Source: Bradyrhizobium sp. B124 (lineage in GTDB: Bacteria; Pseudomonadota; Alphaproteobacteria; Rhizobiales; Xanthobacteraceae). From it: 64,000 nucleotides of DNA. The stretch lies in NCBI RefSeq assembly GCF_038967635.1, contig NZ_CP152413.1:8746001-8810000 (forward strand). Reading direction: 5' to 3'. Every line of letters begins with the position of its first letter. Position 1 is the first letter of the stretch. Below, one piece after another: positions 23,147 to 31,437 of the stretch. A model generated the notes under the pieces. The model was not told the origin of the DNA. It ran no database searches and saw only the letters and a list, made by a program, of their open reading frames with translations. The translations under genes were made by a program, and so were the position numbers.

Positions 23147-23429
23147 TCTGATGATCTCCCCATTTCGCCCGTCCCGAACGCGAAATGAGACCCCGCTGCG
23201 TGTCTACACCGGGGCAAAAAAAGGGAATCTTCGGGCCTCAGAGGGCAAAAGCTGGGCAATATCATCCCAGTGGATCGTCGGCAGCAGCTGCACCGATGCG
23301 TGTCGGACCGATCGGTGTTATGAGCCCTTCCGTCTGCAAACCCGCCGGAGCGATTCTTTGAGGCTGATCCTCGGTGCGGCGTTGCCTGAGGATGATCATC
23401 ACGAATTCGTGATGTCCTTGGCGTGCCGC

Positions 23430-23454
23430 GTAACAAACTGAAAGATCGGCCGAA
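23430..23454 (+). promoter_or_regulatory. Putative SigF-type autoregulated promoter
   Basis: GTAACA (23430-23435), a 15-nt spacer and CGAA (23451-23454). This is close to the GTAACC-N16-CGAA promoter remembered for Caulobacter SigF, the sigma factor paired with NrsF. It lies just upstream of the proposed GTG start at 23474, fitting autoregulation with a very short leader. Confidence 0.45.
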
Positions 23455-23473
23455 TTGCAATTCAGGAGCCTGC

Positions 23474-24019
23474 GTGCGCGAACGTGAGGATGAATGGACC
23501 GACCTGATGCGGTCGGCCATTTCAGGCGATGACGCGGCGTATCATCGCCTGCTCAAGGCCATCACGCCGGTACTCCGTGCCGCGGCGCGACGTGGCTTGG
23601 CGCGCGCGGGACAACCGGTCGATCAGTCCGAGGACATCGTGCAGGACATCTTGTTGGCGGTGCATTTGAAGCGACAGACCTGGGACACGAGCGCGCCGTT
23701 CGCGCCGTGGCTGTTCGCGATCGCACGCAACAAGCTGATCGACGCGCTGCGCCGCCGCGGCAGGCGCATCTTCGTCAATATCGATGACTTCGCCGAGACG
23801 CTGCCGGGGGAAACACCGGAGCCGACGGCCTCGCCCGGCGAGGTGACCGCCCAGTTGCAGGCGTTGCCGGCGCGGCAGCGCGACGTGCTGCAATCGATCG
23901 CGGTCGACAGCACCTCGATCAAGGACACCGCTGCGAAATTCGCGATGACCGAGGGCGCGGTGCGGGTTGCACTGCATCGTGGGCTTGCGAGCCTGACCGC
24001 GAAATTACGGGACCGATGA
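23474..24019 (+). CDS. ECF RNA polymerase sigma factor (SigF-like, NrsF-associated)
   Basis: 181 residues from GTG 23474. Region 2 is seen in SEDIVQDILLAVHLKRQTWD and APWLFAIARNKLIDALRRRG; region 4 in LPARQRDVLQSIAV...AMTEGAVRVALHRGLASL. The GTG is chosen because CAGGAG precedes it by 5 nt; an upstream ATG at 23423 would overlap the promoter-like sequence and add a non-conserved leader. The gene overlaps the next one by 4 bp (ATGA), so sigma and anti-sigma are translationally coupled. Characterised relatives respond to metal or oxidative stress. Confidence 0.85.
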   Translation: MREREDEWTDLMRSAISGDDAAYHRLLKAITPVLRAAARRGLARAGQPVDQSEDIVQDILLAVHLKRQTWDTSAPFAPWLFAIARNKLIDALRRRGRRIFVNIDDFAETLPGETPEPTASPGEVTAQLQALPARQRDVLQSIAVDSTSIKDTAAKFAMTEGAVRVALHRGLASLTAKLRDR

Positions 24020-24660
24020 GCATGGACACCGATCAACTCATTCGAACCCTGACCGCCGACAATGCCTATCGGCCTCGTCCGATCGGTCTTGCGCTGATGA
24101 TGGCGCTGCTGGCGGCGGCGCCGGTCTCGCTGCTGATCTTCTTCGCCGAGCTCGGCGTGCGGCCCGACGTGATGACGGCGATGCATAATCCGTTCTTCGA
24201 CCTGAAATTCGCGGTGACGCTGGCGCTCGCCGCCTCGGCGATCGCGGTCAGCCTGCATCTGACGCGACCGGAAGCCTCGCTGCGCAGCTTCGGCTGGTGG
24301 CTGCTGATTCCCGCCGGCATCCTCGTTGCCGCGATCAGCGGCGAGATGATGATGCCGCAGCGTACGCCGATGATGACGCGGCTGATCGGCAAGAACTCGG
24401 TCGCGTGCATGACCGCGATCCCCGCAATGTCGCTGCCGCTGCTGGTCGGCGCGCTGTACGGGCTCCGGCAGGGCGCACCGGCGCGGCCGGCGATCGCGGG
24501 CGCGGTGGCAGGCCTGCTCTCGGCAGGGCTCGCGGCCACCGTCTACGCGTCGCACTGCACCGATGACTCGCCGCTGTTCGTTGCCACCTGGTACACGCTG
24601 GCGACCGCGATCGTCGCAAGCGTCGGCGCGCTGATGGGGACGCGGGCGTTACGATACTAG
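24016..24660 (+). CDS. nrsF: NrsF (DUF1109) family anti-sigma factor
   Basis: 214 residues with six hydrophobic segments over most of the length and a short N-terminal cytoplasmic stretch (MSMDTDQLIRTLTADNAYRP). This is the layout of DUF1109/NrsF proteins, which hold the SigF-type sigma factor at the inner membrane. Two cysteines stand out: one in NSVACMTAIP, one in ASHCTDD. Relatives also have a pair of important cysteines, suggesting thiol- or metal-based sensing. ATGs at 24016 and 24022 are both possible. It ends in a CTAG shared with the convergent DUF2336 gene. Confidence 0.85.
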   Translation: MSMDTDQLIRTLTADNAYRPRPIGLALMMALLAAAPVSLLIFFAELGVRPDVMTAMHNPFFDLKFAVTLALAASAIAVSLHLTRPEASLRSFGWWLLIPAGILVAAISGEMMMPQRTPMMTRLIGKNSVACMTAIPAMSLPLLVGALYGLRQGAPARPAIAGAVAGLLSAGLAATVYASHCTDDSPLFVATWYTLATAIVASVGALMGTRALRY

Positions 24661-27326: not shown

Positions 27327-27391
27327 AAGAATCTTGCCTCTCGCGTCGAACCACGCGCCACCCCCCTCAGACCAACTTTGCGAGACGGCCA

Positions 27392-27961
27392 TTGAGCGCG
27401 ACACAGGCGGCTTCAGACGAGGTTCTGATCGCTCGGATCGCTCAAGGCGACCGGCTCGCCATGCAGGTGCTGTACGGACGGCATCATGTCAGGGTGTACC
27501 GCTTCGGGCTTCGGCTCGTGCGGGACGAACAGGTGGCGGAGGACCTCATTAGCGAGGTCTTTCTGGACGTGTGGCGTCAGGCGGGCAAATTCGAGGGACG
27601 ATCCGCCGTTTCAACCTGGCTTCTGGCGATTACCCGGTTCAAGGCGTTGTCTTCGCTGCGGCGAAGGAAAGACGCCGAACTGGACGATGAGGCCGCGAAC
27701 GCGATCGAGGACACGTCCGACGATCCGGAAACGGTGGTGCAGAAGAAGGACACGGGTGACACGCTGCGTAAGTGCCTGACGGGACTATCGGCGGAACACC
27801 GGGAAATTGTCGATCTTGTCTACTATCACGAGAAATCCGTGGAAGACGTCGCAGAGATCGTCGGGATTCCGGAGAACACCGTGAAGACGCGCCTGTTCTA
27901 TGCGCGCAAGAAACTTGCCGAGTTGCTGAAGGCAGCCGGTGTCGAGCGAGGTTGGCCATGA
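27392..27961 (+). CDS. ECF RNA polymerase sigma factor (subtilase-linked)
   Basis: 189 residues from a TTG start. Region 2: DEQVAEDLISEVFLDVWRQA and STWLLAITRFKALSSLRRRK; region 4: LSAEHREIVDLVYYHEKSVE followed by DVAEIVGIPENTVKTRLFYA. TTG 27392 is used because the conserved DEVLIARIAQGDRLAMQVLY lies upstream of the first ATG. The stop codon overlaps the anti-sigma start (ATGA, 27958-27961). Gene order is sigma, anti-sigma, subtilase, which suggests the protease is either a target or part of the signal input. Confidence 0.85.
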   Translation: MSATQAASDEVLIARIAQGDRLAMQVLYGRHHVRVYRFGLRLVRDEQVAEDLISEVFLDVWRQAGKFEGRSAVSTWLLAITRFKALSSLRRRKDAELDDEAANAIEDTSDDPETVVQKKDTGDTLRKCLTGLSAEHREIVDLVYYHEKSVEDVAEIVGIPENTVKTRLFYARKKLAELLKAAGVERGWP

Positions 27962-28707
27962 TGGCTGCGAGCAACAAGAAGGTGCAGGGTCAAGATCCTG
28001 ACGATGTCGAGATGCTGCTGCCCTGGCATGCGGCCGGCACGCTGAACGCGCGTGACGCGCGCCGCGTCGAGGACGCACTCGCTTCCGATCCGGAGCTGGC
28101 CAGGCAGTATGCCGTCATCCGCGAGGAATATGCCGAGACCATCGGCCTCAACGAGAGCCTCGGTGCGCCCTCTGCGCGTGCCATGCAGAAGCTGTTCGCC
28201 GCGATCGATGCCGAGCCGGAGCGCAAGCCGTCGGCGGGTGCGCGCATGTCGGGCTCCGTCGCGGAGTTCTTTTCGAAATTGTCGCCGCGGACGCTGGCCT
28301 GGTCGTCCAGCCTCGGGGCGATCGTGGTGCTGCTGCAGGCCGGCGTGATCGGTGCGGTGCTGATGCGCAGCGAGCCGGCCTCGTTCCAGACCGCCTCGCT
28401 TGATGCCGCCGAACAACGCAGCGCCCCCAGCGCACCGAGCGCGGCCGTCGCACCCAGTGCGCCGATCACCCGCGACCTCGGCGCCAGCGTGGCGGCCGCG
28501 CCGACGCGGCTGTTGGTGCGCTTCACGCCGGATGCCAGGATCGCCGACATCACGTCGCTGCTCGACAATTACCAGGGCGCGATCATCGACGGGAAGGGCG
28601 GGATGTTCCGATTGCAGTTCCGCGCGATGGACAAGGATGGCGTCGTATCGCTGATTGCCCGTTTGCAGAAAGAGAAGATCGTCAGCCTCGCGGTCGAGAC
28701 GCCGTAA
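27958..28707 (+). CDS. Membrane anti-sigma factor with propeptide-like periplasmic domain
   Basis: 249 residues. Cytoplasmic N-terminus (MLLPWHAAGTLNARDARRVE) like other anti-sigma domains but without the HxxxCxxC zinc motif; one TM segment at about 112-137 (LGAIVVLLQAGVIGAVLM); an Ala/Pro/Ser linker; and a C-terminal periplasmic domain (about 181-249). That domain reads as strand (TRLLVRFTP), helix (DITSLLDNYQG), strand, strand (MFRLQFRAM), helix (VVSLIARLQKEK), strand (IVSLAVETP), the order of an I9/subtilisin-propeptide fold. The next gene encodes a subtilase with a similar prodomain. It should hold the upstream ECF factor; the propeptide likeness is inference. Confidence 0.75.
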   Translation: MMAASNKKVQGQDPDDVEMLLPWHAAGTLNARDARRVEDALASDPELARQYAVIREEYAETIGLNESLGAPSARAMQKLFAAIDAEPERKPSAGARMSGSVAEFFSKLSPRTLAWSSSLGAIVVLLQAGVIGAVLMRSEPASFQTASLDAAEQRSAPSAPSAAVAPSAPITRDLGASVAAAPTRLLVRFTPDARIADITSLLDNYQGAIIDGKGGMFRLQFRAMDKDGVVSLIARLQKEKIVSLAVETP

Positions 28708-28744
28708 ACGGTAGCTGACGGTCCTGCGCCGAGTTGAGGTCACC

Positions 28745-30397
28745 ATGACCGCCAACGGCCGGACCAGATCGACGAACCGAGCGGCCATTGCTGCCGCCGT
28801 GTTGTTGCTGGTGTCTGTTGCCGGCTCGGCCTACGCCCAGAATTTCGTGAGATCACCGATCGGCGGCAGGCCGCTCTCCATCGGGCCGCGGGTCAATCCC
28901 GGCATCGGCGGGGCCGGTGGCGGGCTGGCTGACCGCGCGCCGCTCCACGGTCCGGCTACGTCGTGGACCGGCGATGGACCGCGATCGGGCATGCCGCCGC
29001 CCCGTGTGCATGACGCCCCCCGTTTCTCTGCCGACTGCGATGACGGCACGCGCCAATGCTCCGGCCGGCCGGTCTCCGTCAACAGTGGCGGCAAGGGCGC
29101 TGCGAGGAAGGGAAGGGCCGGCGGTGGCGGCAGCAGCCGCGCGCAGGACGTGGCGGCCACGCGAACCGTGCCGAACGAGCTCGTGGCGGAGATCGACGGC
29201 GCATTGACCGAGACCCAGACCGACGCGCTGGCGCGTCGCCATGGTCTGAGGCGGATCGCCTCGCAGAACATCCCGCTGCTCGGCGCGACGATCGGCCTGT
29301 TCCGCACAGCCGGCAATCGCTCCGCCGACGCGGTGGCCCGCGATCTCGCCAGCGACAGCAGCGTCCGCTCCGTGCAGCCGAACTACCGTTACGCGCTGCA
29401 GGACCAGAAGCCGGCAGCGGGCAGCAGTGATCCGGCGCAATACGCCCAGACGCAGCTGCATCTGCCCGAGGCGCACAGGCTGGCGCGCGGGATGAACGTC
29501 ACCATCGCCGTCATCGACTCCGGCATTGATGCCGCGCATGCGGAACTGGCCAACACGGTCGCGGATACGTTCGATGCGCTCGGCAGCAAGGATGGCCCGC
29601 ATGCCCACGGCACCGCCGTCGCCGGGGTGATCGCGGCGCGCGTCAGGCTGACGGGGAGTGCGCCGGAAGTGCGGATCTTGGCGATCCGCGCCTTCGGCGC
29701 GGCCGCCGGCGGCGCTGAGAGTACGTCCTATGTGATCCTCAGGAGCCTCGATTACGCGGTGGCGCACGGCGCGCAGATCGTGAACATGAGCTTTGCCGGA
29801 CCGCAGGACGCACTTGTCGCGCGCGCCGTGGCCGCCGCCGCGGCGAGGGACGTCGTGCTGGTTGCCGCGGCCGGCAATGCCGGCCCGAAGTCGCCGCCGC
29901 TCTATCCCGCCGCCAATCCCGATGTGATCGCCGTCGGCGGCATCGATGCCGGCGAGCGGCTGATGGCGGCCTCGAACCGCGGCAGCTACGTCGCGTTGGC
30001 GGCGCCGGGCGCCGATCTCCTCGTGCCGGTGCCGGACGGCAAATATCAGCTGATGTCGGGCACCTCCTTTTCGGCCGCGTTCGTCAGCGGCATCGCGGCA
30101 CTGGTGCTGGAGCGCAATCCGGCATTGAAGCCCGCCGAGGTGCGCAAGGTCCTGACCGGCACGGCCCGCGATCTCGGGGCACCCGGACGTGATGACCTGT
30201 TCGGCGCCGGGGAGGCGGACGCGCTTGCTGCGGTGACGGCGGCGACCAGCGCGCCGGTCGCGGCCACTGTGGACGAACCGCCGCAGCCTGCAAAGGCAGC
30301 GGACGGCAATAACACTTCCGTGAGCCGCGCGTTGAATGAACCCGCGCCGTCGATCGCAGCGGACGATTCCGCGGCAAATCACCGTGCTGCGCAGTGA
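28745..30397 (+). CDS. Exported S8 family (subtilisin-like) serine peptidase
   Basis: 550 residues. Signal peptide with cleavage near AYA-QN (about 31), a Gly/Pro-rich region (35-135), a propeptide-like domain (about 139-220, NELVAEIDGALTETQTDALA to VRSVQPNYRY), then the catalytic domain. The triad is readable: Asp258 in VIDSGID, His288 in HAHGTAVAG, Ser441 in SGTSFSAAFVSG; the oxyanion Asn is in AAAGNAGP. The C-terminal tail is Ala/Pro-rich. It starts 37 bp after the anti-sigma gene in the same operon. Likely periplasmic or secreted; it may process the anti-sigma factor or respond to the stress the sigma factor governs. Confidence 0.9.
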   Translation: MTANGRTRSTNRAAIAAAVLLLVSVAGSAYAQNFVRSPIGGRPLSIGPRVNPGIGGAGGGLADRAPLHGPATSWTGDGPRSGMPPPRVHDAPRFSADCDDGTRQCSGRPVSVNSGGKGAARKGRAGGGGSSRAQDVAATRTVPNELVAEIDGALTETQTDALARRHGLRRIASQNIPLLGATIGLFRTAGNRSADAVARDLASDSSVRSVQPNYRYALQDQKPAAGSSDPAQYAQTQLHLPEAHRLARGMNVTIAVIDSGIDAAHAELANTVADTFDALGSKDGPHAHGTAVAGVIAARVRLTGSAPEVRILAIRAFGAAAGGAESTSYVILRSLDYAVAHGAQIVNMSFAGPQDALVARAVAAAAARDVVLVAAAGNAGPKSPPLYPAANPDVIAVGGIDAGERLMAASNRGSYVALAAPGADLLVPVPDGKYQLMSGTSFSAAFVSGIAALVLERNPALKPAEVRKVLTGTARDLGAPGRDDLFGAGEADALAAVTAATSAPVAATVDEPPQPAKAADGNNTSVSRALNEPAPSIAADDSAANHRAAQ

Positions 30398-30939: not shown

Positions 30940-31437
30940 ATGACACATCGGACCGACGTGGCCAGAGGCCAGGAGATCGTTGCACGCTGGTGCAACCTTG
31001 CCGAGCAAAGGCTGGAGCACCTCAACGAGCTGTTCGAAACCGGACGCTGGCGCCGCTATCACAGCGAGCAGGCCTTTCTCGAGAATGTCAGGGAAGCGCG
31101 GGCCGCGGTCGACATCTGGCGCGAATTGCTGACCCGCGAAGCTTCGCTCGACAATTCGCCGGTCGATCTGTCCTGGCTCGGACGCGGCAAGTCGAAGCTG
31201 CCGCCGCCGCGCGATCTTTCGCCGGCGCAGCAGCGCCGCTCGGAGGCTGCGACATTGGCGGAGGCGGCGATGACCGCGGTCGCGGCCGCGATGGAAACGG
31301 CGGCCGAGGTCCTGGAGCAGCCGCCCGTTGTGGCCGACGCGCCGCCGCTGGAGATGCCCCCTCCGGTCATGCCGCCGCCGGTGCTCGATCTCGACACCAT
31401 CCAGCGGCGCTATCCGTTGCTGCGCAACGCGCTGTAG
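30940..31437 (+). CDS. TIGR03809-like protein, unknown function
   Basis: 165 residues: a conserved-looking N-terminal half (LAEKRLEHLNELFETGRWR-type sequence, here EQRLEHLNELFETGRWRRY) and an Ala/Pro/Glu-rich C-terminal half (about 95-150) ending IQRRYPLLRNAL. No signal peptide; probably cytoplasmic. I recall a Bradyrhizobiaceae family (TIGR03809) of this kind found beside the Tat-exported repeat protein family TIGR03808, matching the convergent neighbour 8 bp away. Function unknown. Confidence 0.65.
   Translation: MTHRTDVARGQEIVARWCNLAEQRLEHLNELFETGRWRRYHSEQAFLENVREARAAVDIWRELLTREASLDNSPVDLSWLGRGKSKLPPPRDLSPAQQRRSEAATLAEAAMTAVAAAMETAAEVLEQPPVVADAPPLEMPPPVMPPPVLDLDTIQRRYPLLRNAL

What the first reader, a model, noticed from the sequence alone, without database searches (positions are those of the whole stretch)
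27958..30397. Anti-sigma factor whose periplasmic domain mimics the propeptide of the adjacent subtilase
The anti-sigma factor ends in a domain (about residues 181-249) with the strand-helix-strand-strand-helix-strand order of a subtilisin propeptide/I9 inhibitor. The next gene in the operon is an exported S8 peptidase with its own similar prodomain (about 139-220). Propeptides of this fold bind and inhibit their protease. The sequence order, coupling and fold pattern suggest a circuit in which free protease is captured by, or cleaves, the anti-sigma domain and so sets the activity of the ECF factor. I know of no described sigma system with such a pseudo-propeptide sensor. The secondary-structure reading is by eye.
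Basis: partly seen in the sequence, partly recalled or inferred. Interest (0 to 1): 0.8.

Follow-up and report, generated by a model that had tools for sequence, protein, structure and literature searches.

The report
Anti-sigma factor with protease-prodomain-like sensor
A membrane protein that holds a gene-switch protein inactive carries, on its outer face, a small domain related to the removable inhibitor part of the protein-cutting enzyme encoded next to it, which suggests that the switch reads the enzyme's state, although this has not been shown by experiment.

Summary
Confirmed and strengthened. The window encodes an ECF sigma (27392-27961), a membrane anti-sigma factor (27958-28707) and a subtilase (28745-30397). 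AlphaFold2 gives the anti-sigma C-terminus (183-248) a confident beta-alpha-beta-beta-alpha-beta fold. Fold matches are not diagnostic; sequence is: a profile of 53 C-domains aligns end to end with prodomains of six other subtilases (hhalign 95.8%, P 6.6e-9; SPOR 13.6%, ACT 1.2%), Pfam's subtilase-prodomain model recognises two relatives over its cut-off, and the anti-sigma profile finds the prodomain of 1 of 15 co-encoded subtilases (2.4e-7). The window's own domain reaches no Pfam cut-off.

In 49 of 49 genomes of two searches at least one copy lies near a protease gene: S8 in 45, caspase-like C14 in 4. Against a simple pair: some lineages lost the S8 yet keep the domain constrained, and the window's protein ends one residue after the last strand, without a tail for the active site.

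Best reading: a membrane-tethered pseudo-prodomain that docks the co-encoded protease and couples its state to sigma release; docking and direction are inferred.

The parts
27346..27375 (+). TCGAACC-N17-GACCAA, conserved upstream of the sigma gene; candidate ECF-type autoregulated promoter (function inferred)
   Evidence: both blocks invariant in an alignment of 18 upstream regions; position read
27392..27961 (+). ECF sigma factor, 189 aa, TTG start
   Evidence: Sigma70_r2 2.5e-16, r4_2 6.4e-13; NCBIfam NF009168 348 bits against a cut-off of 236
27958..28707 (+). membrane anti-sigma factor, 249 aa, start overlapping the sigma stop
   Evidence: position next to sigma in most relatives
27997..28209 (+). 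anti-sigma domain, residues 14-84, helical (role inferred; zf-HC2 match 14.4 bits, below the cut-off of 22.2)
28294..28362 (+). transmembrane segment, about residues 113-135, inside predicted helix 110-137
   Evidence: helix; hydrophobic segments at the same place in relatives
28384..28398 (+). juxtamembrane motif FQTAS, residues 143-147; candidate protease-sensitive site (inferred)
   Evidence: [YF]xT[ALFV][STAG] in 67 of 93 sequences of the group not labelled C14 or none, 0 of 6 C14-linked; position
28504..28704 (+). periplasmic C-terminal domain, residues 183-249, subtilase-prodomain-like
   Evidence: fold; homology of its family
28745..30397 (+). S8 subtilase, 550 aa, 37 bases after the anti-sigma stop
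   Evidence: Peptidase_S8 5e-45; nearest NCBIfam TIGR03921 mycosin 196.5 bits, below the cut-off of 278.75
28745..28837 (+). signal-peptide-like N-terminus of the subtilase, residues 1-31 (read by eye; no predictor was run)
29156..29404 (+). the subtilase's own prodomain, residues 138-220
29492..30211 (+). subtilase catalytic domain, residues 250-489; D258, H288, S441

Best explanation
Shown by computation: the anti-sigma factor is a single-pass membrane protein whose outer end is, at family level, a free-standing relative of the prodomain of subtilases, encoded in one row with an ECF sigma and a subtilase that has a prodomain of its own. Inferred: the domain is a membrane-tethered pseudo-prodomain. 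It docks on the surface of the mature co-encoded protease where a prodomain sheet would sit. In the window's protein it has no C-terminal tail to plug the active site, so docking would hold an active protease beside the conserved juxtamembrane FQTAS site rather than inhibit it. Cutting there, followed by ordinary intramembrane proteolysis, would free sigma, which transcribes its own operon including the protease. The protease's own prodomain, or other substrates, would compete for docking, so sigma would read free mature protease in the periplasm. Relatives with longer tails could also inhibit. Lineages without the S8 would use another periplasmic protease.
For: Fold. Homology: hhalign of the C-domain profile A7 (53 rows) against six non-triad subtilase prodomains 95.8%, 67 columns in register; against 26 triad prodomains 60.6%. 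PF22148 matches 12 of 53 C-domains at E up to 0.1 (best 1.3e-6; next family SPOR 5 of 53, best 0.018) and the full-length anti-sigmas L102 and L076 above the cut-off, 2 of 9 tested (L076 is the G155 protein also hit). The anti-sigma profile hits the subtilase prodomain of the same operon in L264 (2.4e-7; 1 of 15 triads in that set), and the earlier profile A5 that of a lone subtilase in G533 (1.2e-5). Coupling: 36 of 36 anti-sigma genomes (32 S8, 4 C14) and 16 of 16 (all S8) have a protease gene near at least one copy, 49 distinct genomes in all. The S8 lies upstream of sigma in two genomes (L091/L140, L094) and the anti-sigma gene is inverted in two (L101/L142, L113/L141). Juxtamembrane motif, in 0 of 10 zf-HC2 controls that scored as having a hydrophobic segment. 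Candidate autoregulated promoter.
Against: No binding, inhibition or cleavage data. The window's own domain has no PF22148 match, and in the family-only set 1 of 40 matched it, E 0.12, against 7 of 40 for SPOR. With family-only alignments hhalign gave 0.5%. The anti-sigma profile missed the subtilase prodomain in 14 of 15 triads, and the triad-prodomain profile A6 hit no anti-sigma there. Ferredoxin-like folds of many kinds score as well or better in structure (S6, Lrp, ACT). Nine S8-less genomes hold no full-length close copy of the subtilase yet the C-domain stays constrained (median omega 0.28 in pairs lacking S8, 0.284 in pairs having it). Four genomes pair the domain with caspase-like proteases, which as far as I recall have no such prodomains. 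The juxtamembrane motif need not be a cleavage site.
Confidence: 0.48

Rival explanations
1. Domesticated sensor: the prodomain-type fold now senses another periplasmic ligand or state, and the protease is only an output of the regulon.
For: S8 lost or in fragments in 9 of 37 assessable genome-contig loci, absent near 3 of 30 and 4 of 19 assessable family loci, while the domain persists; no clear relaxation of selection; caspase-like proteases in its place in 4 genomes.
Against: Does not explain why a relative of the neighbour's own prodomain was recruited, nor protease linkage in 49 of 49 genomes of two searches, in two or more gene arrangements. All nine S8-less genomes searched keep other PF00082 proteins. 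The ratio of C-domain to N-terminal dN is slightly higher in mixed (1.55) and S8-less pairs (1.44) than in S8-bearing pairs (1.34), so slight relaxation is not excluded.
Confidence: 0.27
2. Inhibitor and storage model, close to the first reader's: the domain captures and inhibits free subtilase; occupancy or displacement changes the anti-sigma factor.
For: Prodomain homology. Trans-acting relatives of this kind do inhibit: Aeromonas ORF2 blocks ASP and its C-terminal residues lie at the catalytic site (passages of PMC5638518). Six distant anti-sigmas of A7 keep an AEP motif and 3 to 8 further residues, one of them cut short in A7 (L102, L129, L130, L132, L133, L139).
Against: The window's protein ends one residue after the position matched to the N of AEPN, so it has no tail for the cleft. 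Caspase-linked members are unexplained.
Confidence: 0.15
3. Trans-acting folding helper: the tethered domain helps the exported subtilase to fold at the membrane; signalling follows secretion of the protease.
For: Precedent of the Aeromonas ASP/ORF2 pair (passages); L148 encodes a separate PF22148 protein next to a subtilase-like frame.
Against: The window's subtilase has its own prodomain, so a helper looks redundant.
Confidence: 0.05
4. Generic ferredoxin-like domain (SPOR- or ACT-like) with no tie to subtilases.
For: Structure alone does not separate them: S6, Lrp and ACT rank with prodomains; 7 of 40 family members have weak SPOR matches, best 0.0042.
Against: Profile comparison separates them: SPOR 13.6% over 27 columns, ACT 1.2% over 48, non-triad prodomains 95.8% over 67.
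Confidence: 0.05

Closest known systems
Fervidolysin_NPro-like prodomain of subtilases (Pfam PF22148)
   Same: fold, length and register; detectable sequence homology at family level
   Different: sits at the C-terminus of an anti-sigma factor, tethered to the membrane, not in front of a catalytic domain; no active-site tail in the window; the window's own domain has no PF22148 match
ORF2, external chaperone and inhibitor of Aeromonas sobria serine protease (3wqb, 2mk4)
   Same: a partner supplied in trans by a neighbouring gene; triad prodomains match it only at chance level (E 0.53 and 0.74); inhibition described in passages of PMC5638518
   Different: as described there it acts through its C-terminus and has no link to a sigma factor
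RseA/DegS and other membrane anti-sigma factors controlled by periplasmic proteolysis
   Same: membrane anti-sigma with a periplasmic control part and a protease in the pathway (RseA/DegS as described in passages of PMC8103513)
   Different: here a protease is encoded in the same row and the control domain is a relative of its prodomain
Csx30/CASP-sigma with the Csx29 protease
   Same: a protease of the same locus acts on an inhibitor of an ECF-like sigma (passages of PMC10028731)
   Different: RNA-triggered CRISPR system; no prodomain-like domain mentioned in the passages seen
ECF54 sigma factors with subtilase, carboxypeptidase and CHAT proteins nearby
   Same: subtilases or caspase-type proteins in the neighbourhood (passages of PMC8999054)
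   Different: described there as lacking an anti-sigma factor

Membership tests
Subtilase prodomain, PF22148 | window protein itself over the Pfam gathering score | tested here: not met
   no PF22148 match for P0001 at E up to 1 nor for its C-domain at E up to 0.1
Subtilase prodomain, PF22148 | family members over the gathering score of 21 bits | tested here: met
   2 of 9 full-length anti-sigmas: L102 24.7 and L076 22.3 bits; L116 20.8 just under; six no match; the L076 protein again as G155, 22.8 bits
Subtilase prodomain, PF22148 | beta-alpha-beta-beta-alpha-beta fold | tested here: met
Subtilase prodomain, PF22148 | profile homology to prodomains of subtilases | tested here: met
   95.8%, P 6.6e-9, 67 columns, with controls
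Subtilase prodomain, PF22148 | lies N-terminal to an S8 catalytic domain in the same chain | tested here: not met
   C-terminal to an anti-sigma-type half and TM helix
Subtilase prodomain, PF22148 | C-terminal tail reaching the active site | tested here: not met
   one residue after the AEPN-equivalent position
Subtilase prodomain, PF22148 | inhibits or helps fold its protease | not testable with these tools
   needs purified proteins
Inhibitor_I9, PF05922 | profile match to I9 | tested here: inconclusive
   hhalign 4.1% over 23 columns against an alignment of only 8 sequences
SPOR, PF05036 | profile match over the whole domain | tested here: not met
   13.6%, 27 columns; best member E 0.0042
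Membrane anti-sigma factor of an ECF sigma | encoded with an ECF sigma | tested here: met
Membrane anti-sigma factor of an ECF sigma | transmembrane segment | tested here: met
   helix 110-137, hydrophobic in relatives; no dedicated predictor was run
Membrane anti-sigma factor of an ECF sigma | recognised anti-sigma model over its cut-off (window protein) | tested here: not met
   zf-HC2 14.4 of 22.2 bits; NF052375 31.7 of 100 bits; relatives L102, L130, L133, L139 are over the zf-HC2 cut-off
Membrane anti-sigma factor of an ECF sigma | binds and inhibits the sigma factor | not testable with these tools
   needs experiment

The most novel reading that the evidence does not exclude
A widespread proteobacterial signalling design in which a protease's prodomain was copied onto the membrane anti-sigma factor as a receptor for that protease, so that transcription is set by the amount of free mature exported protease. 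The same receptor was re-used with caspase-like proteases in some lineages.
Probability: 0.42. Interest if true: 0.8.

Novelty: new variant of a known kind. Interest (0 to 1): 0.66.

Why it matters
For many membrane anti-sigma factors the input of the sensor domain is unknown (general knowledge). Here homology names a likely ligand, the protease encoded next door, and makes the input testable with two purified proteins. It would also be a case of a protease prodomain recruited as a signalling receptor, and it gives a handle on what such subtilases of soil bacteria like Bradyrhizobium are for.

Tried and rejected
Family-only profiles: hhalign of the 40-sequence C-domain alignment against the 29 triad prodomains gave 0.5%; the signal came only after distant relatives were added (36.3%, 60.6%, 95.8% against other subtilases). 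PDB sequence searches found no prodomain: none with the whole anti-sigma, only chance-level hits with C-domain profiles A2 and A7 (best E 0.17 and 0.55). One search counts the 12 PF22148-matching members but does not list them. In one search the profile A7 met, among S8-containing frames, only the G533 subtilase below E 1 (6.5e-4 to 8e-4).

Relaxed selection after S8 loss: looked for, not clearly seen (317, 212 and 30 pairs); pairs are not independent, the ages of the losses are unknown, and the dN ratio is slightly higher in pairs with an S8-less member. The C14 against S8 contrast of the juxtamembrane motif rests on 6 C14-linked sequences; the 93 sequences also hold S8-less family members and many close relatives. 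Arg in all 6 C14-linked juxtamembrane regions was noted by eye, not tested. Two of the 10 zf-HC2 controls with a hydrophobic segment may not be membrane proteins (by eye).

Rows dropped before counts: G431 and G488 (E 6.0e-4 and 6.9e-4; not anti-sigma by reading) and G533 (the hit is a subtilase prodomain). Second hits: G453's second copy (L135) has no protease found within about 5 kb; the second hit of G586 was not looked at. From the ten PF22148 loci I left L146 and L151 (triad subtilases), L148 (separate protein) and L150 (an anti-sigma) out of the six-sequence prodomain set; one of the six, L147, is the G533 subtilase. Ten rows of A7 were cut short at the C-terminus when chosen, so their tail lengths are lower bounds. 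The searches score a limited number of candidates in each genome, so genome counts are lower bounds.

Literature: ten text searches. In the listings, judged by title and abstract start, and in the passages read, no anti-sigma factor with a propeptide or I9-like domain appeared. Subscription papers and preprints are mostly not in that library; the 2021 ECF reclassification paper is not held.
Full report
What is there. The window lies in a 9.17 Mb genome held as one contig; its nearest named relatives by the anti-sigma factor are Bradyrhizobium. Three genes run in one direction: an ECF sigma factor (27392-27961, TTG start), an anti-sigma factor (27958-28707) whose ATG overlaps the sigma stop, and a subtilase (28745-30397) that begins 37 bases after the anti-sigma stop. 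The subtilase has a signal-peptide-like start by eye, its own prodomain, and Asp258, His288 and Ser441 in the expected motifs. Upstream of sigma, TCGAACC-N17-GACCAA is invariant in 18 aligned upstream regions, a candidate autoregulated promoter.

The domain. AlphaFold2 on 48 full-length anti-sigmas gave a helical N-terminal half, a long helix at 110-137, a low-confidence linker, and a C-terminal domain with E183-189 H195-204 E208-213 E216-221 H226-238 E242-248 at block pLDDT 89-94. Foldseek and VIA place it in the ferredoxin-like class: pro-subtilisin and subtilisin prosegments are among the best rows, but so are ribosomal S6, BLUF, Lrp and ACT domains. Structure alone does not settle the question.

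Sequence does, at family level. Within the family alone no link was visible (hhalign 0.5%; PF22148 1 of 40 and SPOR 7 of 40 weak matches). With relatives from other families of the class and from outside the class, found by profile searches, the C-domain profile (A7, 53 rows) aligned in register over 64 columns with the triad subtilases' own prodomains (60.6%) and over 67 columns with six prodomains of subtilases outside such operons (95.8%, P 6.6e-9). Controls by the same script: SPOR 13.6%, ACT 1.2%, I9 4.1% (8 sequences only), reversed triad prodomains 0.7%, best of 60 column shuffles of the triad prodomains 9.6%, of 60 of the combined set 2.5%, of 40 of ACT 1.2%. Independently, Pfam PF22148 (Fervidolysin_NPro-like) matched 12 of 53 C-domains at E up to 0.1, best 1.3e-6, and crossed its cut-off in 2 of 9 full-length anti-sigmas, L102 and L076, with L116 just under and six without a match (L076 is also the G155 hit). 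In the other direction, the anti-sigma profile found the prodomain of a lone subtilase (G533, E 1.2e-5) and, in L264, the prodomain of the subtilase in the very same operon (E 2.4e-7; direct BLASTP of the two, E 3e-4 for that single comparison with filters off). It missed the other 14 of the 15 triad subtilases of that set, and the triad-prodomain profile A6 hit none of the anti-sigmas, so the link is remote. The window's own domain reaches no Pfam cut-off; its homology rests on the family with which it aligns throughout.

Coupling. In one search, 37 of 398 genomes matched: one hit was a subtilase prodomain and the other 36 genomes held anti-sigma-type genes; 32 had an S8 gene and 4 a caspase-like C14 gene near at least one of them. 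In one search, 18 of 385 matched: 2 were false by reading, and 16 of 16 had an adjacent S8 (one of these, G453, has a second copy, L135, with no protease found within about 5 kb). Three genomes are shared, so 49 distinct genomes: 45 S8, 4 C14. The second hit of G586 was not examined. The S8 lies upstream of sigma in two genomes (L091/L140 and L094), and the anti-sigma gene is inverted in two (L101/L142 and L113/L141), so the link is not one frozen gene order. In L125 and L127 a membrane-protein-like frame lies between, by eye; in L126 and L131 the C14 gene overlaps the anti-sigma gene. My sigma profile recognised no sigma gene in L126, L127, L134 or L135. In one search, 77 of 119 family genomes matched; I read the context of 30 (27 with S8) and of 20 more, 17 of which had matched only N-terminally. 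All 20 carry the C-domain; 15 of 19 assessable have an S8. The remaining 27 were not looked at.

Evidence against a simple pair. Of 38 genome-contig loci, one (L054) ends inside the anti-sigma gene; of the other 37, nine lack the S8 or keep only fragments, one (L037) has it in two frames, and two (L041, L063) are cut by contig ends. L038 keeps decayed pieces and L048 a remnant beside a transposase-like frame (by eye). Nine S8-less genomes were searched with the subtilase and none has a full-length close copy, though each has at least one other PF00082 protein. The C-domain stays under purifying selection: median omega 0.28 in 30 pairs lacking S8, 0.298 in 212 mixed pairs and 0.284 in 317 pairs having it; the ratio of C-domain to N-terminal dN is 1.44, 1.55 and 1.34 (pairs not independent). 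So the domain seems to do something that does not need that particular protease.

Mechanism. In a known trans-acting partner, Aeromonas ORF2, the C-terminal residues contact the catalytic site (passages of PMC5638518). In the window the chain ends one residue after the position matched to the last residue of the AEPN motif. It could therefore dock as a prodomain sheet does but could not plug the site; six distant relatives keep AEP and 3 to 8 further residues. After the TM segment lies a conserved [YF]xT[ALFV][STAG] motif: 67 of 93 in the group not labelled C14 or none, 0 of 6 C14-linked, 0 of 10 zf-HC2 controls with a hydrophobic segment. I infer that docking presents a juxtamembrane site to the protease and that cleavage there starts release of sigma. 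Binding, cleavage and direction of control are not shown.

Known relatives and novelty. The nearest kinds are subtilase prodomains, Aeromonas ORF2, RseA/DegS-type anti-sigma proteolysis (passages of PMC8103513), the CRISPR Csx29/Csx30/CASP-sigma system (passages of PMC10028731), and ECF54 loci with subtilase and CHAT proteins but, as described there, without an anti-sigma factor (passages of PMC8999054). In ten text searches, read as listings and some passages, no anti-sigma factor with a prodomain-like sensor appeared. I rate it a new variant of a known kind: a membrane anti-sigma factor with a new type of sensor domain.

Noticed in passing
L125, L126:5927-7942, L127, L131:4453-5256: Anti-sigma-type genes with the same C-domain lie beside caspase-like C14 proteases (exported, by reading of their N-termini) instead of subtilases in four genomes of the same phylum but another class.
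   Followed up: partly
L038, L040, L042, L046, L048, L053, L056, L062, L065; L019, L028, L030; L255, L266, L269, L270: The subtilase is missing or decayed while the anti-sigma C-domain remains in many Bradyrhizobium and family relatives. Sigma remains too, except that none was recognised in L019 or L255.
   Followed up: partly
L148:1111-1701: A separate 197-aa secreted-looking protein with a PF22148 domain (22.4 bits, over cut-off) lies next to a subtilase-like frame: a candidate prodomain supplied in trans.
   Followed up: partly
window 23423-24660: A second ECF sigma with an NrsF-type anti-sigma (PF06532, 2.3e-56) lies about 3 kb upstream of the triad.
   Followed up: no
window 27346-27375: Conserved TCGAACC-N17-GACCAA upstream of the sigma gene, candidate ECF promoter.
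   Followed up: partly
window 30940-31437: A 165-aa frame without a Pfam match follows the triad; similar frames lie downstream in relatives, also where the subtilase is gone.
   Followed up: no
L127:5414-6701 and L125:4945-6771: Two genes with the C-domain in one locus, near a C14 gene, one of them without an obvious anti-sigma half.
   Followed up: no
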